A DNA stretch of 41,064 nt from Geminocystis sp. GBBB08 (lineage in GTDB: Bacteria; Cyanobacteriota; Cyanobacteriia; Cyanobacteriales; Cyanobacteriaceae): the NCBI RefSeq assembly GCF_016743215.1, contig NZ_VRZC01000014.1:1-41064 (forward strand). The letters are read 5' to 3'. Position numbers and translations under genes: made by a program. Below the pieces are notes generated by a model. The model was not told the DNA's origin, searched no databases, and saw nothing but the letters and a program-made list of their open reading frames with translations. This document shows positions 4,796 to 28,389 of this stretch, piece after piece (positions within the stretch are counted from its first letter, which is position 1; each line of letters begins with the position of its first letter).

Positions 4796-4860
4796 ATTTT
4801 TATAATTTGGTCAAGAAATATTATTTTCATAGTTTATTTTAATAAACGTTTTTTGTTAGC

Positions 4861-4878
4861 TTGGAAATAAATTTCCAA
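4861..4878. promoter_or_regulatory. Perfect palindrome between chrA and atpD
   Basis: TTGGAAAT-AA-ATTTCCAA, 8-bp arms with a 2-bp centre, located 66 bp upstream of the chrA start and 130 bp upstream of atpD. Such a compact palindrome in a divergent promoter region could be an operator for a dimeric regulator. No regulator gene is adjacent and the factor is unknown. Confidence 0.35.
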
Positions 4879-5001
4879 AAGAGATAATTACTTAAAATCC
4901 TTTAGACCAAATTGAGATCATAAATTGATCCAGTCCATGATAATGTTGAAAGTGGCAAATTTTATTATAAATTCACATTTACGAAAGTAAATTAACGATA
5001 A

Positions 5002-7020: not shown

Positions 7021-7130
7021 TTAGCCATTGCCTATCGCCTATTGCCCAGTGCATCGTTGCCCATTCCCTGAAAAATTTAGAATTTAGAAATCAGGAATTA
7101 AAAATGAAAGGGAATAACAGCCAAAAGCGA

Positions 7131-9056
7131 TTAAATACTTAATAAACCAGAAGGATTAACCGAAAGTAAATCACGCCTTTGTAAACCTTCTTGATGAAGA
7201 ATAGCATTTGCACAGAGTAAACCACTACTAACTGCTCTTTCCATTAAACCACAAGGAAAAGGCATTTTTACCCAATCCCCAGCAAACATCAGGTTTTTAA
7301 TGTCAGTTTCCGTTTCAGGGCGCATTTTAAAACTATTTGGTGGATAACCAGAAAAATTCTTCTGATTAACTAATTGTTGATGTAAAATGTTGGCATCAGC
7401 TAACTCTGGCACAATTTCGTATAATTCCTGCACAAAAGTAGCTAAAATTGCTTCTTGGGTGGGAAATTCCTTTTCTTTATAACAATAAGCGTGTAATTCG
7501 ACAACGCTTCCTCCTGTTTTTTGTGCCCATGCCTTATATTCTCTTTGGATGCGATGATAAAGGGTGATACTATCGGTTAATTTATAGCCTGAAAGAGAAG
7601 CAAAATTACTATGTTGCCAATCAAAATCTTTGTCTAACCAAAAACGCCCGACGGCAAAAGGATCTGCTAATGCTAAACTGGCTACCTGAGTCTTAGTGTG
7701 AGCAAAATTTTCTCCTTCACCTTCCATCAAATTAAATAAATGTTTTAAGCCATTAACATCCGTTGCCACCACAAAGTAATCGCCTTCAATTTTCTTCGGT
7801 TTACTAACTATGTTGGTATTATCCGCCACTAATTTCACCCTATTGTCTTCAACGGCGATAACTTTGTAAGTATTAAGGTTTCTTTTTGCAGGAGGGTTGA
7901 CAATTTTACCATCTTGATCATACATTGCTCCATGACAAGGACATAAAAATTTACCGTCTTCTTGCTTATTTACGATACATCCTTGATGGGTGCAACTCAA
8001 AGAAAAGGCTTTATCAGTATTTTTCACTACTGCAAATAATTCATCTCCTGCCCCATAATAGTCATAATGGTTATCTTTTAATAAAGGATTAACGTCAACC
8101 CAAAAAGGCACATTACTAATATTTTCACCTTCATAGTATTCTATTGAATTTATTTTATTACCGTCATAATGAATTTTACTAATATTAGCTTCCGTGATGA
8201 CTTTTCCGCCATTATTTTTGATATTTTCAGCGATGGGATTAACTAAACTTGTACCCATATCATCTACCGTACCATTAAAAGCCAACCCTTCAGGATTACC
8301 GAAAAAATAGAAATGAAAAAACTGCATTAGTTCACCAGTACTTAATACATCAGGAGCGTTAAGAGAAGACTTAGCGAAGGGAAGAAAATATAAGTCAAAT
8401 AAGCCTTGAGGAATACCTTTTTTTGCCCAATCAGAGACAGAAATTGCATCTAAATCATCATAACTATTGGGAATTTTAAAGCTAGTAATAGCATGAAAAA
8501 CTCGCCAATGGGCAGGATTAGCTAGATTTATACCCCAATGAAGAGAATTTCGGGAGGATATAGCTAAATCGACTATATTCCAAGGAAAAGAAGAATGACT
8601 AGGGCGAAAATTTTCAGGTGCATATTTATCATCTTTAAACACCACCGAATAATAATCTAAAGATTGAAAATTATCCTTAATCTTAATTTCGTTAACAATG
8701 CTTTTGAGGTTATAGTATTGAGGGAAAAAACCATGAAAACCATGTTCCATTTTAAAGGAATCTTCTCCTATTTCAATATCCCAACTGGCGATTTTTCCTC
8801 CTAATTGTGGTGATTTTTCTAATAACGTCACCTCAAATCCTCGATTACTTAACTCATAAGCCGAAGCTAAACCTGCCAATCCTCCACCAATAACAACGAC
8901 TTTTTTAGGTTTATTTAGTTTTCGAGGTAGGGTTAAAGTATCCCATTGATGAATTGTTGGTTGAGGTTTAACCACTCTTGAATAAACGAGAATACCGAGA
9001 ATACCAGTAACGGTAAATAGTTTAAGAAGAGTGCGACGGGAGAGAAAACTATTCAT
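7131..9056 (-). CDS. Tat-exported FAD oxidoreductase with internal Rieske [2Fe-2S] domain
   Basis: A 641-residue flavoprotein of the phytoene-desaturase/amine-oxidase superfamily. The N-terminus SRRTLLKLF followed by a hydrophobic stretch is a twin-arginine signal, so it is probably exported to the periplasm or thylakoid lumen. The FAD-binding motif VVVIGGGLAGLASAYEL lies at residues 53-69, and the C-terminal NLMFAGDWV is the second FAD-contact region. Between them a Rieske domain is inserted, with ligands C355 and H357 (CTHQGC) and C372 and H375 (CPCH), plus disulfide cysteines C360 and C374. The arrangement suggests one-electron transfer between a Rieske cluster and the flavin acting on a lipophilic substrate, possibly a carotenoid or quinone. 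Substrate unknown; the desaturase name alone would be over-annotation. Confidence 0.85.
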   Translation of the reverse strand: MNSFLSRRTLLKLFTVTGILGILVYSRVVKPQPTIHQWDTLTLPRKLNKPKKVVVIGGGLAGLASAYELSNRGFEVTLLEKSPQLGGKIASWDIEIGEDSFKMEHGFHGFFPQYYNLKSIVNEIKIKDNFQSLDYYSVVFKDDKYAPENFRPSHSSFPWNIVDLAISSRNSLHWGINLANPAHWRVFHAITSFKIPNSYDDLDAISVSDWAKKGIPQGLFDLYFLPFAKSSLNAPDVLSTGELMQFFHFYFFGNPEGLAFNGTVDDMGTSLVNPIAENIKNNGGKVITEANISKIHYDGNKINSIEYYEGENISNVPFWVDVNPLLKDNHYDYYGAGDELFAVVKNTDKAFSLSCTHQGCIVNKQEDGKFLCPCHGAMYDQDGKIVNPPAKRNLNTYKVIAVEDNRVKLVADNTNIVSKPKKIEGDYFVVATDVNGLKHLFNLMEGEGENFAHTKTQVASLALADPFAVGRFWLDKDFDWQHSNFASLSGYKLTDSITLYHRIQREYKAWAQKTGGSVVELHAYCYKEKEFPTQEAILATFVQELYEIVPELADANILHQQLVNQKNFSGYPPNSFKMRPETETDIKNLMFAGDWVKMPFPCGLMERAVSSGLLCANAILHQEGLQRRDLLSVNPSGLLSI

Positions 9057-9140
9057 GTATTGCTATTTTGGAATATATCTTGATAAATTAACATTTCTTA
9101 ACTTAAATTATCATTAATTTCTCTCTTAGGATCAAGTTTA

Positions 9141-9243
9141 TCAGGAATTAGGAATTAAGTAATAGGTAATAGGTAATAGGGAATGGGGAATAGGGAATGG
9201 GGAATAGGTAATAGGTAATAGGGAATGGGGAATGGGTAATAGG
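9141..9243. repeat. Heptanucleotide tandem array outside the left inverted repeat
   Basis: A run of degenerate 7-mers (GGTAATA, GGGAATG, GGGAATA) covering about 100 bp and ending against the left terminal repeat of the island. A related array of GGTGATA-type heptamers lies outside the right terminal repeat at 16863-16917 in inverted orientation. Confidence 0.8.
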
Positions 9244-9249
9244 GTGATG

Positions 9250-9343
9250 GTGTTAAAGAAAGAAAAGTTTTATCAGCAATTATCCCACGAGAAAATAAAT
9301 TTCAAAGTAATAGCTAACGTTATCTAAAGATAACTTAATTTCT
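9250..9343 (+). repeat. Left terminal inverted repeat of the island
   Basis: About 94 bp reading GTGTTAAAGAAAGAAAAG at the outside and including AATTATCCCACGAG near the middle. It pairs with 16631-16725. At the outer junction it preserves GGTGATG-GTGTTAAAG, which corresponds to the MITE-interrupted site at the right end and so acts as a natural empty-site control. Confidence 0.85.
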
Positions 9344-9390
9344 GATTCCTCATTTCCTCATCTCCTCATCTTCTTCCTCCCTGTCTTGAA

Positions 9391-12300
9391 TTAGTTTTCT
9401 TGGCATAAGATTAGATTTAAAATATTCAAGTTACAAGAAGAAAAAATTTGTTTATCCGTAAATAGTTTATGTCTCAATAAGTTGAAGCTGAAGCTATTAA
9501 ATAATAAAAAAGGAAACTCATGATAATATGAGCCAATGGGTAAAACATTTTGTAAAGGAAATATGTATCTTAAATAAGATTGTAAAATTGTCCGAAAACT
9601 GTTTTCTTCTCCTAATTTTTCTTCAACTTCTGTCGCTAAATATTCTTTGATAATTTGCGGATTAATTAATAGTAGAAAAGGAAAGGCATAATATTGATCA
9701 AATTGTTGGCTATTTTGTTGAAACCATTTAGTCATTGTATCATTTTTCTTCATCTTTTCTAACAATTCGATCGCATGATAACAAGCCATAGTTAAATGAT
9801 GATTATAACTATCACTTTGACTAATATATCTTAATTTTGAGAGTAAATATTGATTGATTTCTTGTTGTAAATTTAACTCATAAGTTTCTTTTAATTGACG
9901 ATTTACTAAAGGAATAATTAACATATTTCCACTAATAAAACTAGGCTCAATCATGCCTATATTTAACAATTCTGCTACATTGTTATTGACAGATTTAATA
10001 AATTTATCGCTAAAAGATTCTCGAATATTAAGATAAGAAACAGGGTTATTTTGAGGATTTTTGTCTATCCACTTTAATAAAAAGTCTGTCTTACCTAAAA
10101 AAGATTTTAACTTGTCAGAAACCTCTCTTAAAACCTTCGATTTATAGTTAATTTTATACTCCTTATCTAACAGAGTAATTAAATTTTTCATTTTACCGCT
10201 AAAGGTTTCACCCACAGAAGATACTGATTTACCGCCGATAGGGATAATTAGATAACGATGATTGCCAATGTTACCGTAACCTTTAATTCTAGTCATGATA
10301 GCGGCTTTCAGCAGGAGGAGAAGATTGACTACATTTAAAATTTTTTCTTGTAGGGATAATTCGGCTTCTTTCTCATCATCAAAAATTACTTCTTCCCAAA
10401 GATAAAAAGTTAAGAATTTATCTTTATCATCATTAGTTATTTTTTCACCATTTTCAAAAAATTCACCTCTGCCACGATAAATAACTTGGATAATTTCCAT
10501 CAAGTTTGCTTCAATATTAAAACGAGGTATATCTACTAAAATATGCCTAGCTTTTGGAAAAGATAAACCTCGACTTCCCGAAGCAGTCATAAAGATAATT
10601 TTGACATGATTTTGATATTCTTTAATTTTCTGTTTATCAGCTTCAGAATTGTTACTATGAATTTGTAAATAGTCTTTATTTTCAGTAAATTCTGTGTTAG
10701 TTTCTTCTAGTTGAGTGATTAAATCTTGAAGACGACTTTTATCTTGGATATAAACGATAACTTGTTGATTTTCAGGATAAGCAAAAATTCTATTTATATC
10801 ACTGATAATGGCTTGTTGTAAACGGGAAGTTAGATTATTCGTTTTTTCCTTGTAAAGAGATTCCGTAAATTTTTTAGTTTCGAGAAAAATTTGGTAGTTA
10901 ATGGTTAAATTTTTGGAGGGATAGGAGTTAGTGTTAATAATTTTAGCTGGTTTTTGATTAAATTCAAAATTAGTAGCGGATAGAGGTAAAATTTCTGAGT
11001 TAACTCCACGATAGTATATTTTATCAGGCTCAATCGAACTTTTTTCCAAATGTTGATTAATAACTTTTTTATCGACAATGGAAGCATCAGCAATGATAAT
11101 TTTAGCATTGAAGCCATAGGGATTATGAAAAAGATTATATTGACGAAAAAAGTTAGTGACACCAGATAAAAATTCGACACCACTACTATCTCCCGTTATT
11201 TCATCAATCATGATAAAAAAGTGTTTAAAGCGACTAGCAATTGCTGACATTTTGGAAGGGATAACTTGATTTTCTCTTTGGTTGTAGGCAGAATCAAAAA
11301 TTTTCTCAAGATGTTTAAGAGTATCATCTTTTTCATTTAACTTTTTCAAGGATTGAATAGAAATAGTGGCGACAAGATTCCTTGTTTTTTCTTCTTGGAT
11401 AATAGCACAGATACCTTGACAAAGACTATTTAAAACTCCTACTGTTTTTTTCCCAGCATTTTCCCAAGTATCTTGATTTTTTTGTCTGATTTGTTGATTA
11501 ACTTTAGCTTGACGAGGAGTCTTATTTTTCCCATCGATAAACTCAACATTTTTGAGACGGAAATCCCCTTGAAGAGAAGAAGAATCAGAAAAATATTGAA
11601 TAGTTGGTTTCCCTTGGTTACTAGTTATCAAGTTGGCATTACTATTAATTGCTATTAATTCTTTTTGTTGAATGTCACTAAATTTATGAATAATATCCAG
11701 ATTAACTTGAGTGCGTGGACTAATATATAAGAATAAGAAACCATCCTCAAAATATTCTTGTAAAAATTTAACAATGGCGGTAGTTTTACCGATACCAGGA
11801 TTACCAGTCAGGAATAAGTAAGTTAAGTTATCTTCATTCAAGGCTTGACAAATAAGATAAGCATGGGCATCTCTTAAAGTAAGATTTGGAGGAAGATGAA
11901 GACTTGTTTGTAAATCAGGAGAAATTTCGTCAATGGAGTTAACAAAATTTGTTATTTTTTCCTCGTGAGAGATTGTTGTTAGTTGCGGTTTTTCCGAAGG
12001 AGTTATTTCAAGAAGGGAGTTAATAAATTTTCTGCCATTGGTAAAACTTTTAGCGGCATTATATTTAATCGTTTTAACAACTTTTCTCTTCGCCGAAAAT
12101 ATGTCTTGTTTTTCTTCCCGTTGATAAATATATTGACAAGTTTTCAGTAAATTAAGATTTTCAGCAGTAACAGCAATGGAGTTAACACTTCTATCGCTAT
12201 AACCCATGACATTAATTTTTATCTCATCTTCGGTGGTAAGAATTTTGTGGTTTAATAAAAATTGATAAAAACTATAACCATAACTACCAGCTTGAATTAA

Positions 12301-13059
12301 TTTAACTGTTTCTTTATCTTGACGTTTAAAAGCTTGGTAATAGTTAGTTAAATCTTTATCAAAATTCACTCCCAAAGAATTATCTTTTTCTCCCGTATCT
12401 ATATTTAAACTTGAAAAGACACTTTTCGATCGCAAATAACTAATTTCGGTAAGAAGAATTTGTTTCCAATTTTCGACATTATCTAAATCTTTGACATCCT
12501 TAAGAGACTTAACAGAAAAAACCGATAAGTCAACCACCAAAAGATGAAACTTTCTTTTATCATGATGACGAATCAAGATTAAAGTATCAGCGCGTAAAAA
12601 CTCTCCTTTTTGACTATATCTATCAATATTAACCTCAAATTCTCCTAACTGAGACAAAATTACGGGAAAATTTTCCTTCTCACTTTTATTACTAATAATA
12701 CTAAAGCTACTTTCCTCAATAAAATTGCATTGACAGTAAACAATTTCTAGTCTTTCATATTTTTGACGAGTAACTATGGAGTCGAGATACTCCCGAAAAA
12801 GATTAAAGCCAGAAAGAAAACCCTTTTCCAAAAAAAACAAAATCCATTTCTCCAAAATCTTCTCGTCTTGAGGATTAATCAAAGAAGAATCCTTGACAAT
12901 TTTTTTCTTGATTTGACTTAACTTGATTTTGCCTAAGTCTTCCTCATAGACATTAGAAAATTTATGTTTTAGTTTTTGTTGTTGAATAAAAGAAAGAATA
13001 CCAACATTAAAACCAATTTCAAAAAGTCTGCCGAAATTTGCCGCTGTTTTATCTTTCAT
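9391..13059 (-). CDS. Large helicase-like NTPase with possible N-terminal nuclease-like region
   Basis: A 1222-residue intact protein. The centre carries superfamily-type helicase motifs: Walker A GNPGIGKTT (residues 419-427), Walker B FIMIDE (615-620), motif III-like IIADAS (655-660), motif V-like MTASGSRGLSFP (824-835) and motif VI-like QVIYRGRGE (858-866). Spacing between Walker A and B (about 190 residues) is unusually large for SF2. Residues 156-179 (RADTLILIR ... FHLLVVDLS) could be the strand pair of a PD-(D/E)XK-like fold, but the final lysine is absent, so nuclease activity is only a suggestion. The C-terminal 300 residues are helical with no recognised domain. The gene is AT-rich, with no clear Shine-Dalgarno, and its leader is partly duplicated. 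It is downstream of the split partner gene on the same strand. Function unknown; DNA or RNA unwinding is inferred. Confidence 0.7.
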   Translation of the reverse strand: MKDKTAANFGRLFEIGFNVGILSFIQQQKLKHKFSNVYEEDLGKIKLSQIKKKIVKDSSLINPQDEKILEKWILFFLEKGFLSGFNLFREYLDSIVTRQKYERLEIVYCQCNFIEESSFSIISNKSEKENFPVILSQLGEFEVNIDRYSQKGEFLRADTLILIRHHDKRKFHLLVVDLSVFSVKSLKDVKDLDNVENWKQILLTEISYLRSKSVFSSLNIDTGEKDNSLGVNFDKDLTNYYQAFKRQDKETVKLIQAGSYGYSFYQFLLNHKILTTEDEIKINVMGYSDRSVNSIAVTAENLNLLKTCQYIYQREEKQDIFSAKRKVVKTIKYNAAKSFTNGRKFINSLLEITPSEKPQLTTISHEEKITNFVNSIDEISPDLQTSLHLPPNLTLRDAHAYLICQALNEDNLTYLFLTGNPGIGKTTAIVKFLQEYFEDGFLFLYISPRTQVNLDIIHKFSDIQQKELIAINSNANLITSNQGKPTIQYFSDSSSLQGDFRLKNVEFIDGKNKTPRQAKVNQQIRQKNQDTWENAGKKTVGVLNSLCQGICAIIQEEKTRNLVATISIQSLKKLNEKDDTLKHLEKIFDSAYNQRENQVIPSKMSAIASRFKHFFIMIDEITGDSSGVEFLSGVTNFFRQYNLFHNPYGFNAKIIIADASIVDKKVINQHLEKSSIEPDKIYYRGVNSEILPLSATNFEFNQKPAKIINTNSYPSKNLTINYQIFLETKKFTESLYKEKTNNLTSRLQQAIISDINRIFAYPENQQVIVYIQDKSRLQDLITQLEETNTEFTENKDYLQIHSNNSEADKQKIKEYQNHVKIIFMTASGSRGLSFPKARHILVDIPRFNIEANLMEIIQVIYRGRGEFFENGEKITNDDKDKFLTFYLWEEVIFDDEKEAELSLQEKILNVVNLLLLLKAAIMTRIKGYGNIGNHRYLIIPIGGKSVSSVGETFSGKMKNLITLLDKEYKINYKSKVLREVSDKLKSFLGKTDFLLKWIDKNPQNNPVSYLNIRESFSDKFIKSVNNNVAELLNIGMIEPSFISGNMLIIPLVNRQLKETYELNLQQEINQYLLSKLRYISQSDSYNHHLTMACYHAIELLEKMKKNDTMTKWFQQNSQQFDQYYAFPFLLLINPQIIKEYLATEVEEKLGEENSFRTILQSYLRYIFPLQNVLPIGSYYHEFPFLLFNSFSFNLLRHKLFTDKQIFSSCNLNILNLILCQEN

Positions 13060-13060
13060 C

Positions 13061-13383
13061 TTTTTTATTTTTTACTGGTGTCTCATAAATTTTAGAGAGT
13101 TTTTCTCGCAAAGGCGCAAAGACGCTAAGAAGAAAATTGATTTTTAAATAAGTTAATCAAGGAAGAAGAGAAGAAGCAATCATCGGCTGAAAAGGAAGAC
13201 AGGAATACAATAAGATAGGATGGCAAGGTAACTTTTTTTATTTTTTACCGCTGTCTCATAAATTTCAGGGGGTTTTTCTCGCTAAGGCGCTAAGGCGCTA
13301 AGAAGAAGAAAATTGATTTTTAACTAAGTTAATCAAGAAACTAAGGAAGAGGAGAAGGAATCATAGTTCGACAAGGTGACAGG
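13061..13383. repeat. Direct duplication of the helicase gene leader
   Basis: Bases 13061-13203 and 13234-13383 are two diverged direct copies of one ~145-bp sequence. Shared landmarks are TTTTTTATTTTTTAC, GTCTCATAAATTT, TTTTTCTCGC, the AAGGCGC-type run, GAAAATTGATTTTTAA and AAGTTAATCAAG. Copy one begins a base away from the helicase ATG. The CTCGC(A/T)AAGGCGC core resembles an interspersed repeat also seen at 28193. The rest of 13060-13442 has short TTCTCAATTC-type repeats and no gene. Confidence 0.75.
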
Positions 13384-13442
13384 TTGACTTTTTGCTTTCT
13401 CATTCTTAATTCTTAATTCTCAATTCTCAATTCACCATCGCC

Positions 13443-14018
13443 TCATTCCTCATTATTAATTAACACGCTTCTAACTTCCGTAAGAAAAGCTAGAGAATTA
13501 AAGTCAACTTTTTTATTGGCAAAGGAAAAAAGACAGTGTTTTCCTACAGAAGAATCATCGATGATATTTTCATAAGGATTCAGTTTTATATTAATGACAT
13601 TTTTGTTGGCTTCAAAACGAGAAAAGTGAAAGAAAGTTAAGTATTGCAGAATATCATCTTTAAGATTGTTACTTTCTTTGTCATAAATTAAGCCTTGACT
13701 AATATCTTGGTTATCTAATATTTCGTCATAGGTATTCAGTAAAGTTGAGTAAGACATCACCCCCCGATAATTTCTTTCCTCCTTTTTTCCCACATATAAA
13801 CCATTAAAGAGATTGAAGAAAACTACTGATTTTTGTGAGTCATCTTCAAACAATTTCCCTAAGTATTCCGTGTCTTGGATATAAAGGGAAGTTGTAGGTT
13901 GTTTTTCTCCTCCTAGTTTTCCTTCCAATTTAACAACAAAATATTTATCAAAAAAAATCGGATAGATTCTTATATCTTGCCTATCACCTTTCAATTTTTT
14001 TAACACCGCCTTTGACAT
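13443..14018 (-). CDS. C-terminal piece of the split large protein
   Basis: A 191-residue frame starting at an ATG (MSKAVLKKLKGDRQDIRIYPIFF). The same frame continues upstream without a stop to 14084, encoding TFSLYCYSSSLNITEEDKDLFF before the ATG, so the ATG is probably internal. It contains alternating strands (IRIYPIFFDKYFVVKL, SVVFFNLFNGLYVG) and a helical C-terminal region with HFSRFEANKNVINIKL. No known motif. There is no Shine-Dalgarno before the ATG (sequence TTTATTTTTC). If the upstream break is a real mutation this piece might still be made separately, but I consider it the tail of the larger protein. Confidence 0.55.
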   Translation of the reverse strand: MSKAVLKKLKGDRQDIRIYPIFFDKYFVVKLEGKLGGEKQPTTSLYIQDTEYLGKLFEDDSQKSVVFFNLFNGLYVGKKEERNYRGVMSYSTLLNTYDEILDNQDISQGLIYDKESNNLKDDILQYLTFFHFSRFEANKNVINIKLNPYENIIDDSSVGKHCLFSFANKKVDFNSLAFLTEVRSVLINNEE

Positions 14019-14050
14019 GAAAAATAAATCCTTGTCTTCTTCGGTAATGT

Positions 14051-14623
14051 TTAAGCTACTCGAATAGCAATATAAAGAAAATGTTTAAAGCCTTCTCTAT
14101 ACAATCTATCTACTTGGTTAACTAATACGGTGGGATTTTTATACATCTCCTCTTTGTTATAGTTAGCTGAAAAAGTAAAATCATTTCTTACTGTTACTTT
14201 TCCATTTTCTTTTACTATTTTCACCACTTCTCCATATAAGTTAGCTATTCTTTTCCCCCCTTTATAATTAGCATCGGCTTCTCGACTCGAAACAATAATT
14301 AAGGCTAATTTTTCTAATTGCGGTTGATAAGATGATTCGGTAACGGTAATTTTTTTTGGCAGTAACGAATATAATGAGCTTAAACTGTTTTTGATTCTGA
14401 AATTTTTCCCTGATTCTGATTCATTTTCCCCTAAATAAAATCCCTGTGCATTGGCAAGATGTTTTTCTCTCAACAAATGTGCTAAAGTTTTAGAATACGA
14501 TCTCATGAAAGTTTCTTCATTATAAGCTGAGTCTTTATCCTTAATATGCAGTCGCATAATGGGAATAAAAATCTTGTGAGATACTGACTCTAAGATTATT
14601 TGTATCGCCAGATAAACTAACAA
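14051..14623 (-). CDS. Middle piece of the split large protein
   Basis: A 190-residue frame whose only possible start is a TTG (encoding LLVYLAIQIIL in the natural frame). The frame is open upstream to the slippery heptamer at 14704, where it would read ETQKQDKEIIFKYPDSPKAF, so it is not a free-standing gene. It contains LEKLALIIVSSREADANYKG and GFKHFLYIA, which look like buried beta strands, and ends abruptly at IRVA. The end lies 33 bp upstream of the next frame's ATG. I read it as residues about 604-817 of one protein. Confidence 0.55.
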   Translation of the reverse strand: MLVYLAIQIILESVSHKIFIPIMRLHIKDKDSAYNEETFMRSYSKTLAHLLREKHLANAQGFYLGENESESGKNFRIKNSLSSLYSLLPKKITVTESSYQPQLEKLALIIVSSREADANYKGGKRIANLYGEVVKIVKENGKVTVRNDFTFSANYNKEEMYKNPTVLVNQVDRLYREGFKHFLYIAIRVA

Positions 14624-16512
14624 CGAAAAAACGAAGCGATAAAAAAAGGCTTTCGGTGAATCTGGATATTTAAAAATAATCTCTTTATCTTGTTTTTGAG
14701 TCTCTTTTTTTCCTTTATAATTAAGTTATGTTGTTGAAATTCTTTTTGATAAAATTCATTAACTTTCTCATCACTCAAAGGCAACATCATAATGGGTAAA
14801 GCTTTAATCCCCGTCAAATCATATCCCAAGTTTAAAGTATGAGTTTCCTGTGTGGGATAATAACGAATATCGTCAATGGTTAAAGTAACTCGAAGATGGC
14901 ATAAATAATCATCGTTAATTCTCGCTTCACCAATGGCAAGAAATTTTAAACTGTCTTTCGTCTTAATTGTGGATTGAAAGAAATTACCATCTTCATTAAT
15001 TTTATCCGCTGAAGTTTTCAAAATATTTTTTCTTATGCCAATTTGTAAAGGATATACCTTTGGCACAATTACAGACTTTTTTAGTAAAAAACTTTTTAAT
15101 ACTTTCTCCAACCTCGCAACTTTCGTCTCAATTTTATATTTTTCAATTCCTTGTTTTATTCCTCGCAAAATATTTTTTTTCTTCTCATTATCACTCGATT
15201 GCAAAATTGGTAAAACTTTTTCTTCCCATGATTCTATCGGATTATATGTCAATTCTGAATTAATATCGTATCCCTCACCATCAATATCTTGTCGGGAAGC
15301 AAAAATAAAGGTAAATAATAGGGCAATTTTTAAAATTTTACGTTTACCACTTTCTCCCTTCCCTAATTCTTCTTGATGTTGCTTACTTTCAGGATTAAGT
15401 AAATTCAAATAATAATTTAAACTAGAGGAAGATTCCCTTTTTTCCCCTTGATTTTTCACTCCCCCATTTAACTTCAATTTCAACCCAAAAATAAACCCTT
15501 TTTCCCCTTTACTTTCGTTAGTTTCTTCCCCTAAATATCCCTCCACTAAGGGAATTATTGGTAACATATCGTAGGCTTCTCCTCTAGAAAATAAATCTCG
15601 ATAATTAACTTCTAATCCCTCATAATTAACTATATAATCTCCTTCTCCTTTATTTTTATCATTTAAATAATTTTCTAATAACCTTAACCGCCTAATTAAG
15701 TCTTGTAAATAGATAGCATCTGAATTTTTATTCACGTCAATCTGACTCAAAATATATTCTAAATAAATAATTTTTGCTTCTTTTTTTAGTCTTCCTACTG
15801 CCTCATTTTTAACTAAGTCAACTAAATTCTCTATTTCTGATTTTTGTTTATTTTTACGATAATCACTATAATTAATAAATTCATGTAAAGTTAACTCTAA
15901 ATCTTCGTATATTTCTGAGTCAACATCACTAAAATTTGTCGATAAATTCTTCCTTAAACTATCTTTCAATTCTTGCTCAAATTCTTTTATATTCTTAACT
16001 TTTATCGTTAACTTATGTAACTTTAAACTAGAATTGTTAGGAATAATTTTTTCAGGATTTGAGATAGTTAATCTTTGCTTTTTAATGCCATTTATGTCAC
16101 TAAAAGCATATTCAAAACCTTTATTTTTTTGATAGTTTTTCCATTTAGTTAAATCGATTAATAATTTGTTAATACTCTTTTCTAAAGACTGATTATTAGG
16201 AGTTATTTTAACTAAGAAATCTCTTAATTTATCTCTAATATTTCTAATTTCTTGAGGAAAACTGTCTTCACTCTCATCACTAAAATTAATACTAACACAG
16301 TGATCGCTTTTATTAATACTAGCTGGTAAAGATATTTCGTCAGATAAGGCAATATTTCTCGCTATAGTATCAACATTAATCTTTAATCTTTTGTTATCAG
16401 ATGAAAATTGAAAAGGATTATATTGGTCAAGTTGCCGTAAAATTAATCTTAATAAAGAAGTATAATTAACGGTTGTTAATAAATCATCTTCTTCTCTTAA
16501 TTTGTTAGCCAT
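14617..16512 (-). CDS. N-terminal piece of the split large protein
   Basis: A 631-residue frame with an ATG start (MANKLREEDDLLTTVNYTSL). It is rich in Lys, Asn, Glu and Ile, mostly helical to about residue 300, with a more beta-rich segment from about 495 to 575 (KVYPLQIGIR, FLAIGEARINDDYLCHLRVT, TLNLGYDLTGIKALPIMML). No recognised domain, signal peptide or membrane span. The last 28 residues (RLKNKIKRLFLNIQIHRKPF...) are basic and differ in character from the rest, as expected for translation in the wrong frame after the A7 tract at 14705-14711. Upstream lie a heptamer array and the right inverted repeat, so a promoter must lie within 16513-16640 or inside that repeat. Confidence 0.6.
   Translation of the reverse strand: MANKLREEDDLLTTVNYTSLLRLILRQLDQYNPFQFSSDNKRLKINVDTIARNIALSDEISLPASINKSDHCVSINFSDESEDSFPQEIRNIRDKLRDFLVKITPNNQSLEKSINKLLIDLTKWKNYQKNKGFEYAFSDINGIKKQRLTISNPEKIIPNNSSLKLHKLTIKVKNIKEFEQELKDSLRKNLSTNFSDVDSEIYEDLELTLHEFINYSDYRKNKQKSEIENLVDLVKNEAVGRLKKEAKIIYLEYILSQIDVNKNSDAIYLQDLIRRLRLLENYLNDKNKGEGDYIVNYEGLEVNYRDLFSRGEAYDMLPIIPLVEGYLGEETNESKGEKGFIFGLKLKLNGGVKNQGEKRESSSSLNYYLNLLNPESKQHQEELGKGESGKRKILKIALLFTFIFASRQDIDGEGYDINSELTYNPIESWEEKVLPILQSSDNEKKKNILRGIKQGIEKYKIETKVARLEKVLKSFLLKKSVIVPKVYPLQIGIRKNILKTSADKINEDGNFFQSTIKTKDSLKFLAIGEARINDDYLCHLRVTLTIDDIRYYPTQETHTLNLGYDLTGIKALPIMMLPLSDEKVNEFYQKEFQQHNLIIKEKKRLKNKIKRLFLNIQIHRKPFFIASFFRC
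14704..14710 (-). other. In-phase A_AAA_AAG slippery heptamer (candidate -1 frameshift site)
   Basis: Read on the minus strand the codons are GAA AAA AAG AGA, placing A_AAA_AAG in exactly the phase of the classical -1 slippery site used in dnaX and several insertion sequences. A -1 slip makes the next codon GAG and enters the 14051-14623 frame, which is open from that point. An AAAGGA just upstream could act as a stimulatory Shine-Dalgarno but is closer than usual; no strong downstream hairpin is visible. An indel in the A7 tract is the rival explanation. Confidence 0.5.
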
Positions 16513-16527
16513 AATATTTAGAATTTA

Positions 16528-16620
16528 GATATCAGGTATTAGATATTAGGTATTAGGTATTAGGTATTAGGTATTAGGTATTAGGTATCAGGTATCAGGT
16601 ATCAGGTATCAGGTATCAGG
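16528..16620. repeat. Heptanucleotide tandem array (TTAGGTA / TCAGGTA)n
   Basis: About twelve copies of a 7-mer, first TTAGGTA then TCAGGTA, occupy most of the space between the start of the split gene and the right inverted repeat. The orderly change of unit implies two rounds of expansion. It lies where the promoter and leader of the split gene would be expected. Confidence 0.9.
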
Positions 16621-16630
16621 GGGAGAAAAA

Positions 16631-16725
16631 AGAAATTTAGTTATGTTTAGATAACGTCAGATATTAGCTTTGAAATTTATTTCCTCGTGGGATAATTATT
16701 AATAAAACTTTTCTTTCTTTAACAC
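16631..16725 (-). repeat. Right terminal inverted repeat of the island
   Basis: The reverse complement of this 95-bp stretch matches 9250-9343 at about 90%, with identical outer 24 bases. Its outer base is immediately followed by the MITE at 16726-16862, so that insertion post-dates the repeat. Confidence 0.85.
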
Positions 16726-16862
16726 TATAGCAATCCTAAATGATTCGTGGCAAAATAAGGACTACAAATTTAAAGGCAAGGGGTTTAAACCTCTTGTTGA
16801 ATAATAGGTAAAACATTATTTCCTATCTTTAAATATTTCACAACTGATTTAGTATTGCTATA
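16726..16862. mobile_element. 137-bp MITE with TA target duplication, copy 2
   Basis: It matches 1411-1547 at 134 of 137 positions. The flanks read CTTTAACAC-TA at the left and TA-TCACC at the right, and the homologous sequence at the island's left end (GGTGATG-GTGTTAAAG) lacks it. Removing the element and one TA gives a sequence that aligns base for base with the left end. This is direct evidence of insertion with TA duplication. No coding sequence inside. Confidence 0.9.
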
Positions 16863-16917
16863 TCACCTATCACCCTACCTATCACCCTATCACCCTATCA
16901 CCCTATCACCTATCAAC
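16863..16917. repeat. Heptanucleotide tandem array outside the right inverted repeat
   Basis: Seven to eight copies of TATCACC / CTATCAC directly follow the MITE and end 11 bp before the stop codon of the SpoIID-like gene. On the minus strand the unit is GGTGATA, close to the GGTAATA/GGTGATG heptamers outside the left inverted repeat. Confidence 0.9.
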
Positions 16918-16928
16918 TATTCGCTACA

Positions 16929-18554
16929 TTATTGGCTAGGTTGCCAAAATATAATAGACTTATTTAAAGGCTCAAGTTTAGTACCTGGATAATAAAATTC
17001 TAATATTTTTTGCGCTGACCAACCTAAATAAGCTAAATTATAACTACCAAACTGGCTCAATCCTACTCCATGCCCAAATCCGCCACCTATAAAGGCATAT
17101 CCGGCGAGTTTTTTATTTTTATCATAAAAAGGCTCTAAGTAAAATAAAGTACTTCTAGGAGGCGTAAAGGCACTTCTCACTTCATTTTTAGCAAGGGATA
17201 CCACCCCTAAGTCTGTGGTTATATCTAGTTTAATCACTCTACCTGAAGGCGATCGCTCTATAATCTTCATTTCCTGAATGGTGTTAAAATCTTGAAGAGG
17301 GTGTTTTGTTCTTTTTAAATATTTTTGTAAATCTTTTGTTAAGTTTTCTAAGCTACTTTTACGATTCCAACGAAATAAGCTTCTTCCTGTCTCATTAAAT
17401 CCTTTTTGTAAAGCAATAAAGTTGCGAAAATTTGCCTCCGATTCGAGAGTATTTTCTCCTAAATTCCACACCTGTTGCGGTGAATCAATCACGGATTTAA
17501 GATAAGGGCGATTTTCCCCATTCCAGACATCTTCAAAATAAGATGTTACCCCCCCCGTGGTAGAAGAATATAAGGCATCTACTAGCTCGTTATTATAGGT
17601 TAGCACTAATCCTTTCGTTTTGGCGATCGCTTGATCGGAAATAGGGGAAGTGCCTGTTAAACCATAATAAACTTGACAATGAGTTGTCGCACACATTTCA
17701 TAATTATCAGCTTGAAATCGGCGAGTATTGCGAAGGGCATAAGTACGAGCAATGATAGTTTGTGCTTCAGCGGCGGCTAAGGGAACGTTACTACCAATTT
17801 CATGGGGTACGACACCCCGCAAATAAGTCTCAAGATCAACTTTATTCACAAGGGTATAATCACCATAAGAGTTTGGTTGCAGGGTGAAATTTCCCCCGTA
17901 ACTACGCCATGTACCTTTGATACCGTCTTTTACTTGTATAATATCTCTATTACTGTCTATTTCTAAATAACTAGCTTGATAAGTATTCTCTCCAACTTTA
18001 AATGACACTACTGGTTTTTCTAACAATATCGTCGTTTCAATATAAACATCTTTATAGCCTTTTTCTTCAATTCCTTTCAGTAATAATCTCTTTAATAAAG
18101 GTGTAGAATAAGTACTACGTTTAGCCCACACTTGCCAACGCCCGGGTTGTGTAATTTCTACATCAATACCTAAAGATTGCCAACGTTGAGCATCATTTTC
18201 GGCAGTTTCAAATGTACCATGATCTCCTAAAATTAATCTTTCTTCAATAATTTTATTCGGTAATGGTTTAGGTGTCATCGATAATTTTAATTCATTGGTG
18301 GTTAAAGTTTTTTCTTCTTGGGTAGATAAATTAGTAAATTTAACGGTTAAAGAGTCACCCTGAGTACTTTTGAGGGTAATTTCATCTTCTAATTCGTCCC
18401 CAAATCTTTGTACAATACCTACTTTTAAATCTACTGCTAAAACTGGAAAAGTGTGATAAAAAAGAGAAAATACCAGTAATAGTGGTAAAGCAAACCAAAC
18501 TTGAACAGATGTCAACGGTAGAATCTTAAAATGGTACTGATTATTAAACTTCAT
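16929..18554 (-). CDS. SpoIID/LytB-domain protein
   Basis: About 541 residues from the ATG at 18554; a GTG at 18578 would add eight residues and cannot be excluded. The N-terminus has an uncleaved anchor or signal peptide (VWFALPLLLVFSLFYHTFPVLA). Residues about 100-230 form a beta-rich region, followed by the SpoIID domain with LRGVVPHEIGSNVPLAAAEAQTIIARTYAL and the C-terminal GGGFGHGVGLSQFGSYNLAYLGWSAQKIL. SpoIID in Bacillus is a peptidoglycan lytic transglycosylase acting on glycan strands lacking stem peptides; cyanobacteria do not sporulate, so a general cell-wall remodelling role in the periplasm is likely. The catalytic Glu of SpoIID lies in the PHEI segment, which is present. A single-gene unit divergent from obgE. 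Confidence 0.88.
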   Translation of the reverse strand: MKFNNQYHFKILPLTSVQVWFALPLLLVFSLFYHTFPVLAVDLKVGIVQRFGDELEDEITLKSTQGDSLTVKFTNLSTQEEKTLTTNELKLSMTPKPLPNKIIEERLILGDHGTFETAENDAQRWQSLGIDVEITQPGRWQVWAKRSTYSTPLLKRLLLKGIEEKGYKDVYIETTILLEKPVVSFKVGENTYQASYLEIDSNRDIIQVKDGIKGTWRSYGGNFTLQPNSYGDYTLVNKVDLETYLRGVVPHEIGSNVPLAAAEAQTIIARTYALRNTRRFQADNYEMCATTHCQVYYGLTGTSPISDQAIAKTKGLVLTYNNELVDALYSSTTGGVTSYFEDVWNGENRPYLKSVIDSPQQVWNLGENTLESEANFRNFIALQKGFNETGRSLFRWNRKSSLENLTKDLQKYLKRTKHPLQDFNTIQEMKIIERSPSGRVIKLDITTDLGVVSLAKNEVRSAFTPPRSTLFYLEPFYDKNKKLAGYAFIGGGFGHGVGLSQFGSYNLAYLGWSAQKILEFYYPGTKLEPLNKSIIFWQPSQ

Positions 18555-18649
18555 AACACCGATATTATTTTGATACACACCTAAATATTTAATAAAATTT
18601 ATTTACTTCAAAATTATATAGTAACAAATCATAAAATCAAAAGTGAATC

Positions 18650-26559: not shown

Positions 26560-27990
26560 TCATTGCATCTGTTTCAGAGTTTCGATCGCCTGTTTGTAAC
26601 TTTGTATATCTCCTTGTTCATAAAACAAATTAGCTGATTGAGTCGTATCATTAATGGCTTCAACTACCAAATCTAACTCATAATAGGCAATACCACGATT
26701 ACCATAAGCCAAAGAAAATTTAGGATTATAACGAATAGCCTCTGTATAATCGGCGATCGCCTCTTCAAACTGACCTAAATCTGAATAAATATTGCCTCGA
26801 TTGTAATAAGCATCCGCATAATCTGGTTGATACTTAATAGCTTGTTCGTAGTCTCGTAGAGCATAATCTGTATTACCTAACAAATATTGTAAAAACCCTC
26901 GATCATTATAAGCCTGACTAAAATCAGGTTTAAGTTTAATGGCTCGATCATAGTCTTTTCTTGCTCCTCGTTCATCTCCCTGACGAAACATCGCTAATCC
27001 TCGATCATGATAGGCAAGAGGATTTTGCGGATTCAATTTTAGTACTTGAGTTAAATCCTTAATGCCATTACGGTAATCACCTAATCTTACTAAAGTATGA
27101 CCACGACCTTGAAAAGCTCTTTCAAATTTGGGATCAAGTTTAATCGCCATATTATAATCATTTAGAGCTTCGGAATCATTTCCTAGGGAGGAATAAACAT
27201 CTCCTCTGTGACAAAAAAGTTCAGCAGAAGAAGGATTATTAAGAATCGCCTCATTTAAAGATTCGAGATCAGTTTTCGCCGTCATAACCCAGACATCTTC
27301 CATTAAAGAATGGTTTAAGATTTTTTCATCAATTTTTGTGATAATTTCAACAGAAATCGGCTCATTCTTAATGTCTTCTATGGGTGCATTTTGTTCTAAA
27401 ATAGGTGTATCAACAGAAATCGGCTTATTCTTAATGTCTTCTACCGGTGTATTTTCTTCAAAGATAGGGGTATCAACGGAAATTGGCTCATTCTTAATGT
27501 CTTCTGCTTCTGTTTTGTGAACTTCCATTGTCGGTATAATTATTGATTGTTCCTCAATTACTGGATTGAGTTTTATACCTAAAATTTCATTCAATTTACT
27601 GATTATGCGAGGCAAGTTGTCAGGGTTGAGTTTCGGAAAAATTCCCGTCAATCCTTGATATTTAGCCCAACTTTGTTGAAAACTAGAAATTTGTTCATCT
27701 TGACCATTAAGAGCGAAAATATAGATAGAAATTTTATTATCTTTACACCAACGAGATAAAGAACTTGCTTGATAAAAATGGCCATCTGGAGTCTTAGCAC
27801 TAACATCAATTAACACTAAATCAGGAAAAGTAAATTGATTTTCTTGGTGATTTTGGAATAACTCAGTAATATTTGTATTTGGAGACTCGACATTTAAAAT
27901 AATTTCATCAGAATCAAGTAGTTTAAGCCACTCTTTTTCTTGTTCAGAAATGGTATAAAGGAATAGTATTTTTGGTTTATATTTGGACAT
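26560..27990 (-). CDS. TPR protein with N-terminal receiver-like domain and internal 21-residue repeats
   Basis: A 476-residue soluble protein. Residues 1-140 resemble a response-regulator receiver (KILFLYTISE, LVLIDVSAKTPDGHFY, IYIFALNG), with the phospho-acceptor-like aspartate in LIDVS, but the conserved lysine region is atypical, so it may be a pseudo-receiver. Residues about 162-215 are a linker of tandem 21-residue repeats beginning EDIKNEPISVDTPI. The C-terminal half contains about six TPR units (AYNDRGFLQYLLGNTDYALR, AYYNRGNIYSDLGQFEEAIA), a protein-docking scaffold. No membrane segments. It is probably an adaptor in signalling; partner unknown. A single-gene unit. Confidence 0.85.
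   Translation of the reverse strand: MSKYKPKILFLYTISEQEKEWLKLLDSDEIILNVESPNTNITELFQNHQENQFTFPDLVLIDVSAKTPDGHFYQASSLSRWCKDNKISIYIFALNGQDEQISSFQQSWAKYQGLTGIFPKLNPDNLPRIISKLNEILGIKLNPVIEEQSIIIPTMEVHKTEAEDIKNEPISVDTPIFEENTPVEDIKNKPISVDTPILEQNAPIEDIKNEPISVEIITKIDEKILNHSLMEDVWVMTAKTDLESLNEAILNNPSSAELFCHRGDVYSSLGNDSEALNDYNMAIKLDPKFERAFQGRGHTLVRLGDYRNGIKDLTQVLKLNPQNPLAYHDRGLAMFRQGDERGARKDYDRAIKLKPDFSQAYNDRGFLQYLLGNTDYALRDYEQAIKYQPDYADAYYNRGNIYSDLGQFEEAIADYTEAIRYNPKFSLAYGNRGIAYYELDLVVEAINDTTQSANLFYEQGDIQSYKQAIETLKQMQ
27348..27507. repeat. 63-bp in-frame tandem repeat in the TPR gene
   Basis: Direct repeats start at 27348, 27411 and 27474 (period 63 bp, about 2.5 copies). They encode EDIKNEPISVDTPIFEENTP and variants. 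Because the period is a multiple of three, copy-number change alters linker length without breaking the frame. Confidence 0.9.
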
Positions 27991-28192: not shown

Positions 28193-28237
28193 TCTCGCAA
28201 AGACGCAAAGACGCAAAAATACAAAGACGCAAAAATG
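28193..28237. repeat. CGCAAAGA-type short tandem repeat
   Basis: TCTCGCAAAGACGCAAAGAC followed by further imperfect CAAAGACGCAAAAA units. The same core occurs in both copies of the 13061-13383 duplication. The 399-bp spacer 27991-28389 holds nothing else convincing apart from the promoters of the divergent TPR and permease genes. Confidence 0.7.
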
Positions 28238-28389
28238 TAAAGAAAATAAGATTAATAGATTTCTCAAGGTAATTATTAGATAATGTTAAGAAATTTATCA
28301 TAAGTTATTTAAGAAGATTAATAAGTATTAAACTCAATAATTAATTCAATATTTATTTAGATCTTTTTAACAAAACTTATTAAACAAAA

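What the first reader, a model, noticed from the sequence alone, without database searches (positions are those of the whole stretch)
9250..16725. 7.5-kb accessory island bounded by ~95-bp inverted repeats
The sequences at 9250-9343 and 16631-16725 are inverted copies, about 90% identical, with identical outer 24 bases, and they frame exactly one gene set on one strand. There is no transposase. Conserved genes lie on both sides, and heptamer arrays lie on both outer edges. This looks like an unnamed mobile or exchangeable cassette rather than core chromosome.
Basis: partly seen in the sequence, partly recalled or inferred. Interest (0 to 1): 0.8.

Follow-up and report, generated by a model that had tools for sequence, protein, structure and literature searches.

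The report
Broken Argonaute-like gene with helicase partner
The supposed mobile island in this cyanobacterium is framed by two copies of a scattered repeat, probably by chance, but its contents are a little-studied gene pair: an Argonaute-shaped protein (here broken) and a helicase, possibly a plasmid- or virus-defence system.

Summary
The two ~95-bp inverted copies are real but do not bound a mobile unit. The repeat is dispersed in this genome: 35 model hits, 12 nearly full length, ten of those on ten other contigs. The closest relative, G001, carries the same cargo remnant between the same flanking genes, without this repeat or the window's heptamer arrays.

The cargo is two genes, not four. 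Three ORFs (631, 190, 191 aa) are pieces of one broken gene, K, a single 993-1022-aa ORF in six relatives. The other, H (1222 aa), is an intact SF2 helicase with a candidate N-terminal PD-(D/E)XK nuclease domain. K has no convincing Pfam, NCBIfam, PADLOC or PHROGs match, but its AlphaFold model is Argonaute-like (Foldseek E 1.9e-5; Z 11.8 to Aquifex Argonaute); no sequence-level support was found. K-H occurs in many cyanobacteria, often near purQ or pheT, and on six plasmid records, all typed conjugative. It most likely works like ApsAB/DdmDE anti-plasmid systems: inferred, not shown. The copy here looks decayed.

The parts
9250..9343 (+). left copy of a ~95-bp dispersed repeat
   Evidence: 19 BLAST matches in own genome; 35 model hits
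16631..16725 (-). right copy of the same dispersed repeat, opposite strand
   Evidence: 91% BLAST identity to the left copy; whether the two are sister copies is unresolved
9144..9244 (.). heptamer array on the outer side of the left copy
   Evidence: absent at the G001 site
16525..16620 (.). heptamer array on the inner side of the right copy
16861..16920 (.). 7/8-mer array about 135 bp outside the right copy
13443..16512 (-). gene K, Argonaute-fold protein, broken into three ORFs (14617-16512, 14051-14623, 13443-14018)
   Evidence: single 993-1022-aa ORF in six relatives; three in-order pieces against intact K; fold from an intact relative
9391..13059 (-). gene H, SF2 helicase with candidate N-terminal PD-(D/E)XK domain, intact
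   Evidence: Helicase_C; fold of a relative; motif residues kept in the window protein
13061..13350 (.). two copies of another repeat between K and H
   Evidence: families D2/D3
7131..9056 (-). flanking gene: FAD amine oxidase with Rieske domain
   Evidence: adjacent in G001, elsewhere in G003 and G004
16929..18578 (-). flanking gene: SpoIID/LytB-domain protein
   Evidence: matches in 58 of 60 genomes, paralogues included

Best explanation
The segment holds an old accessory two-gene operon, K-H, that happens to have a dispersed intergenic repeat on each side; the repeats did not bring it. K is a highly divergent, probably catalytically dead Argonaute-like protein. H is an SF2 helicase with a candidate N-terminal nuclease domain. 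By analogy, K would bind a short guide through its MID-like domain and find matching foreign DNA (plasmids first), and H would unwind and degrade it, as in ApsAB and DdmDE. In this genome K is interrupted in two places while H is intact, so the system is probably off or being lost. Shown here: dispersed repeat, cargo without repeats in kin, broken K reading frame, conserved K-H pairing, predicted folds, plasmid and genomic settings. Inferred: guide binding, nuclease activity, anti-plasmid role.
For: Repeat dispersed; cargo without repeats at the same site in G001; K is one ORF in relatives. K-H pairing: 44 of 59 full-length K have H downstream within 6 kb, 34 with gaps of 300 nt or less, of which 13 overlap. 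K model pLDDT 82.7, pTM 0.78; all 17 Foldseek matches with E <= 0.001 are Argonaute, PIWI or SPARTA chains; VIA Z 11.8 to A. aeolicus Ago, 406 residues, rmsd 5.8 A. MID-like Q680-G681 invariant in 44 of 44, K705 in 41 of 44. H: SF2 core, Prp2 Z 14.4; E14, D162, D179, K214, D223 invariant in 39 of 39, in an alpha-beta-beta-beta-alpha-beta order. Setting: K on six plasmid records, all six typed conjugative; an Eco57I-type methylase gene and a PIN-domain gene between K and H in G004; HNH endonuclease genes near a distant H in Acinetobacter.
Against: The Argonaute link rests on predicted fold alone. hhalign of K against a cyanobacterial pAgo profile gives P 0.15; the reversed K control gives 0.53, but the H control gives 0.047, better than K. 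None of 44 members matches Pfam Piwi. Foldseek TM-scores over the whole chain are low (0.16-0.22 by query for the first 17) with large rmsd. H has D-x-S where PD-(D/E)XK enzymes usually have a lysine; a displaced lysine is assumed, and that domain was not searched alone. PADLOC shows only weak helicase matches for an H relative (mad8 0.0035, type IV DinG 0.014). In Nostocales the pair sits stably near purQ, which also fits a housekeeping role. One K break lies near A/T runs, so an assembly error there is possible.
Confidence: 0.6

Rival explanations
1. A mobile or exchangeable cassette whose ends are the two inverted repeats, moved in trans or by homologous recombination between repeats.
For: Inverted copies with identical outer 24 bases frame the operon. 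By BLAST the right copy is the best match to the left (91%, the others up to 86% over full length), and by tree path the two are nearest to each other (0.15 against 0.17 to C294), though no fork is resolved. K-H is found at different loci within the genus.
Against: Same cargo remnant at the same site in G001 without repeats; no repeat hit near K-H in G004 or G002; dispersed copies on other contigs; in the alignment matrix the left copy is as close to C290 (88%) as to the right copy (87%).
Confidence: 0.06
2. K-H is a housekeeping nucleic-acid-processing pair (repair, R-loops or RNA) of cyanobacteria, not a defence system.
For: 22 of 63 K loci have purQ and 13 pheT upstream within 1.9 kb; purQ-linked H proteins form one clade, so long vertical residence.
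Against: Patchy presence (H in 26 of 60 genomes, own included; K in 7 of 194 drawn across the class, own included), repeated decay (G000, G001, G196, Hormoscilla), plasmids typed conjugative, an R-M type methylase gene inside the G004 operon.
Confidence: 0.25
3. K-H is simply a cyanobacterial branch of ApsAB-like systems already noted in print.
For: PMC11096173 (section 11 read) mentions ApsAB-like systems in some cyanobacteria; the QG...K part of the ApsB motif is conserved in K.
Against: ApsA carries its nuclease at the C-terminus, H's candidate is N-terminal; ApsB is described as lacking a typical PIWI domain while K's model matches MID-PIWI; among near-invariant residues of K 550-1004 no Y is followed by K four residues on.
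Confidence: 0.25
4. The breaks in K are assembly errors and the gene is intact.
For: Draft genome of 325 contigs; A and T runs of six and seven near the first break.
Against: The second break has no homopolymer longer than five in the stretch read and lies in a stretch conserved in nearly all intact relatives; the neighbour G001 is decaying too.
Confidence: 0.1

Closest known systems
ApsAB anti-plasmid system (E. coli ST38; PMC11096173, passages and section 11 read)
   Same: [quoted passage not shown] QG...K of the MID-like motif; often partly deleted
   Different: nuclease domain C-terminal in ApsA, candidate N-terminal in H; ApsB described as lacking a typical PIWI fold, K's model matches it
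DdmDE (Vibrio cholerae; known here through PMC11096173 passages and recall)
   Same: Argonaute-like partner plus helicase-nuclease
   Different: no sequence link tested; DdmE is said in that paper to lack the MID-like motif
pPIWI-RE systems (PMC3702460, section 7 and passages read)
   Same: divergent PIWI protein with an SF2 helicase in one operon
   Different: DinG-type helicase plus separate REase gene, other gene order; no pPIWI-RE Pfam model matches K
Long prokaryotic Argonautes (PMC6299218, passages read)
   Same: overall predicted fold, MID-PIWI match
   Different: no detectable sequence similarity; no conserved catalytic Asp seen where strand order places it
Dispersed intergenic repeats and heptamer STRRs of cyanobacteria (term recalled; only a search listing seen)
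   Same: short, multi-copy, some copies beside heptamer arrays
   Different: this ~95-bp family has no Rfam match at E <= 1; no name came up in the listings

Membership tests
Inverted-repeat-bounded mobile cassette | repeats mark the ends of the mobile unit | tested here: not met
   G001 has the cargo at the same site without repeats; dispersed copies
Inverted-repeat-bounded mobile cassette | transposase or recombinase gene | tested here: not met
   no such family in the ORFs between the repeats
Inverted-repeat-bounded mobile cassette | target-site duplication / precise empty site | tested here: inconclusive
   intergenic spacers differ too much between G000 and G001
MITE | terminal inverted repeats within the element | tested here: not met
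   in 11 of 12 copies the ends pair no better than in 33 or more of 300 shuffles; only C103 does (4 of 300); consensus fold shows one internal 6-bp hairpin
Argonaute/PIWI superfamily (K) | Argonaute fold with MID and PIWI | tested here: met
   Foldseek and VIA on a pLDDT 82.7 predicted model of an intact relative; whole-chain TM-scores are low
Argonaute/PIWI superfamily (K) | match to the Pfam Piwi model or pAgo profile | tested here: not met
   0 of 44 members; hhalign no signal above controls
Argonaute/PIWI superfamily (K) | MID guide-binding residues | tested here: inconclusive
   Q and K conserved at Argonaute-like spacing, the two upstream residues not recognised
Argonaute/PIWI superfamily (K) | DEDX catalytic tetrad | tested here: inconclusive
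   no conserved Asp at the end of the fourth strand (A-P instead); positions assigned by strand order only; D730 and E748 are invariant but unassigned
ApsAB/DdmDE | SF2 helicase partner | tested here: met
ApsAB/DdmDE | C-terminal PD-(D/E)XK nuclease on the helicase | tested here: inconclusive
   the candidate nuclease is N-terminal; neither end was searched alone
ApsAB/DdmDE | sequence homology to ApsA/ApsB or DdmD/DdmE | not tested
   their sequences were not fetched; PADLOC 2023 gave no convincing match
ApsAB/DdmDE | plasmid elimination | not testable with these tools
   needs an experiment
pPIWI-RE | pPIWI-RE Pfam models | tested here: not met
   0 of 44 K proteins at E <= 0.01
pPIWI-RE | REase gene and DinG helicase in a three-gene operon | tested here: inconclusive
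   K-H is usually a two-gene order, but H relatives show weak DinG-type matches (type IV DinG 0.014; F. magna DinG among the Foldseek rows) and neighbours were not searched for REases

The most novel reading that the evidence does not exclude
K-H is a separate, so far unnamed branch of Argonaute-plus-helicase systems: a long, sequence-unrecognisable, inactive Argonaute guides a helicase that carries its nuclease at the N-terminus, eliminating plasmids or phage DNA in cyanobacteria. It is itself carried on conjugative plasmids and has settled near purQ in Nostocales.
Probability: 0.4. Interest if true: 0.75.

Novelty: new variant of a known kind. Interest (0 to 1): 0.5.

Why it matters
A gene pair found in many cyanobacteria, annotated in the plasmid records seen only as 'hypothetical' plus 'helicase-related', 'helicase-like' or 'ATP-binding', becomes a concrete, testable candidate for guide-directed DNA elimination. 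It would widen the ApsAB/DdmDE theme to a lineage where barriers to plasmid maintenance matter for engineering. The case also warns that inverted repeats around a gene set can be a coincidence of a dispersed repeat.

Tried and rejected
IR-bounded cassette: rejected. MITE with terminal repeats: not supported. Rfam: nothing in 8800-17200 at E <= 1. Viral contigs: 212 stretches matched a pattern, none encodes an H relative. Four-gene operon: rejected. K as recognisable pAgo or pPIWI-RE by sequence: no signal. Scattered single-member Pfam matches of K at E 0.0018-0.008 (DUF7608, PH_SPT16, DUF2267) were taken as chance. Distant Acinetobacter upstream gene as K: hhalign E 0.004 but probability 8%, undecided. 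No row shown is described as DdmD, DdmE or ApsB; that excludes nothing. Papers: searches; only listings were seen except PMC3702460 (passages, section 7), PMC11096173 (passages, section 11) and PMC6299218 (passages). None of the passages seen describes this pair, but PMC11096173 mentions ApsAB-like systems in some cyanobacteria and its supplements were not read.

Correction: in the tree I labelled 13 rows as purQ-linked; one search confirms 12, and L154 is not confirmed. The tree was the quick method, its purQ group has 94% SH-aLRT, and the long branch of the window's genus makes its place beside the plasmid copies uncertain. The 12 near-full-length hits are the copies from which the model was built.
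Full report
The repeats. The repeat finder gives arms 9247-9307 / 16668-16728 at 92%; BLAST of the left copy against its own genome gives 19 matches: itself, the right copy at 91%, and 17 on other contigs. A sequence model from 12 copies finds 35 hits in G000 at E <= 0.01. Twelve are nearly full length (E <= 2e-18): the two in the window and ten on ten other contigs, all twelve being copies the model was built from. Of the four other genomes of the genus, G003 has 19 hits, G004 12, G001 2 and G002 none, all weak (best 2e-7) (150 candidates scored per genome). Several contigs are short or the copy lies near their end, so a far partner could be missed. In the alignment matrix the two window copies are 87% identical, against 88% for the left copy and that of contig C290; by BLAST (91%) and by tree path (0.15 against 0.17 to C294) the two window copies are slightly nearer to each other; all 9 inner forks are open. 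The ends show no terminal inverted repeat in 11 of 12 copies. Random placement of 12, 17 or 35 copies gives an opposite-strand pair within 7.4 kb in 11%, 22% and 65% of trials. The pair is therefore not remarkable.

The site in relatives. G001, closest by its SpoIID protein (92%), has the same order Rieske-FAD / cargo remnant / SpoIID. Window 9364-11374 and 14950-16527 align at 95% and 93% DNA identity. The spacers that hold the repeats and arrays in the window (9152-9363, 16528-16901) are replaced there by other sequence (on the right with a short AAAAATG-type tandem stretch of its own), and the cargo has an internal deletion plus stops. Another repeat copy (C288) is likewise absent from the matching G001 spacer; a third (C317) could not be judged because only one flank matched. 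In G004 the cargo lies about 285 kb from its SpoIID gene and more than 80 kb from the nearest repeat-like hit. In G002 the K and H genes lie on two contigs and no repeat hit was found. G003 lacks both genes. Rieske-FAD and SpoIID are far apart in G003 and G004 and on different contigs in G002, so no simple empty site can be defined.

The genes. In six relatives (G015, G017, G022, G033, G045, G046) the region matching the window's 631-, 190- and 191-aa ORFs is one ORF of 993-1022 aa. G002 and G004 also have it open (1037 and 1060 aa stop to stop). In the window the three pieces are in order and nearly contiguous against intact K. The first break lies near A/T runs. The second, at about 14060, has no homopolymer longer than five in the stretch read and is shorter there than the conserved relatives. 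H is open over 1222 aa and keeps the helicase motif residues.

Fold. K of Oscillatoria PCC 10802 (L109) was modelled on 44 sequences: pLDDT 82.7, pTM 0.78. Foldseek against PDB: 17 matches with E <= 0.001, all Argonaute, PIWI or SPARTA chains, best 1.9e-5; whole-chain TM-scores are low (0.16-0.22 by query). VIA: A. aeolicus Ago Z 11.8 (406 residues, rmsd 5.8 A, 10% identity); a yeast Mediator kinase-module chain Z 10.3 (7kpv_D, which I recall to be Med13); T. thermophilus Ago MID-PIWI Z 9.3, 304 residues, rmsd 4.7 A. There is no sequence-level support: hhalign P 0.15, reversed control 0.53, H control 0.047. Q680-G681 (44 of 44) and K705 (41 of 44) fall 25 apart, like the Q and K of the Argonaute MID pocket (spacing in T. 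thermophilus Ago recalled). The strand where Argonautes carry the second catalytic Asp ends in A-P. Hence 'probably inactive' is an inference.

H of Calothrix C42 (L132) was modelled on 39 sequences: pLDDT 82.3. The SF2 core is clear: Foldseek DHX37 3.5e-8; VIA Z 14.5 to a spliceosome chain (8r09_B, recalled to be Brr2), Prp2 Z 14.4. The N-terminal third has alpha-beta-beta-beta-alpha-beta order, with E14, D162, D179, K214 and D223 invariant in 39 of 39.

Spread and setting. H: 26 of 60 genomes, own included, none of the ten family members outside the genus. K: 7 of 194 genomes drawn across the class, own included, all in this order. In these, 44 of 59 full-length K have H downstream within 6 kb, 34 with gaps of 300 nt or less, of which 13 overlap; some loci end at contig ends, so this is a lower bound. 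Of 63 K loci, 22 have purQ and 13 pheT upstream; 52 held more than 2.5 kb upstream (names by NCBIfam). purQ-linked H proteins fall in one clade (12 of 13 labels confirmed). K is on six plasmid records, all typed conjugative, beside H in the three examined. In a quick tree the window's genus groups with two of these plasmid copies and a Hormoscilla copy (97% SH-aLRT), on a long branch. In G004 an Eco57I-type methylase gene and a PIN-domain gene sit between K and H. Distant H relatives occur on Acinetobacter plasmids, one seen near HNH endonuclease genes. Classical Piwi (PF02171) is in 16 of 60 genomes of the order but not in G000.

Reading. The repeats belong to the background of small dispersed sequences of this genome. 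What deserves the second look is K-H: an Argonaute-fold protein paired with a helicase, patchy, plasmid-borne in some strains, decaying here and in G001, and in some others (G196, Hormoscilla). The closest working model in print that I found is ApsAB/DdmDE (PMC11096173). Whether K-H is a branch of that family was not tested, and the defence role is inference.

Noticed in passing
L112, L130, L131: K-H-K triplets: two K genes flank one H gene on the same strand.
   Followed up: no
L087:9510-16843 (G004): Between H and K lie an Eco57I-type methylase gene (1054 aa), a PIN-domain gene and small ORFs: other defence-like genes inside the operon.
   Followed up: partly
L194 (Acinetobacter piscicola plasmid): A 1191-aa hypothetical gene directly before a distant H homolog (1327 aa), with HNH and WYL genes nearby: possible proteobacterial version of the pair.
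   Followed up: partly
L164, L165 (Hormoscilla); G196:C1:2058983-2060969: Heavily decayed K copies, showing repeated loss of the system.
   Followed up: no
window 13061-13350 and 28196-28243: Two 74-bp copies between K and H, and an array further on, share a CGCAAAG/CGCTAAG-type motif: another repeat type in the window.
   Followed up: no
window 27347-27505: 63-bp tandem repeat inside a TPR-protein ORF.
   Followed up: no
window 7130-18647 against G001: Only this 11.5-kb block aligns between the window and the fetched 18-kb G001 stretch; DNA identity is 93-95% over Rieske-FAD and cargo, 88% over SpoIID, and 84-85% at two other loci, possibly a sign of recombination.
   Followed up: no
window 4830-4902: A weak third match to the ~95-bp repeat model.
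   Followed up: no
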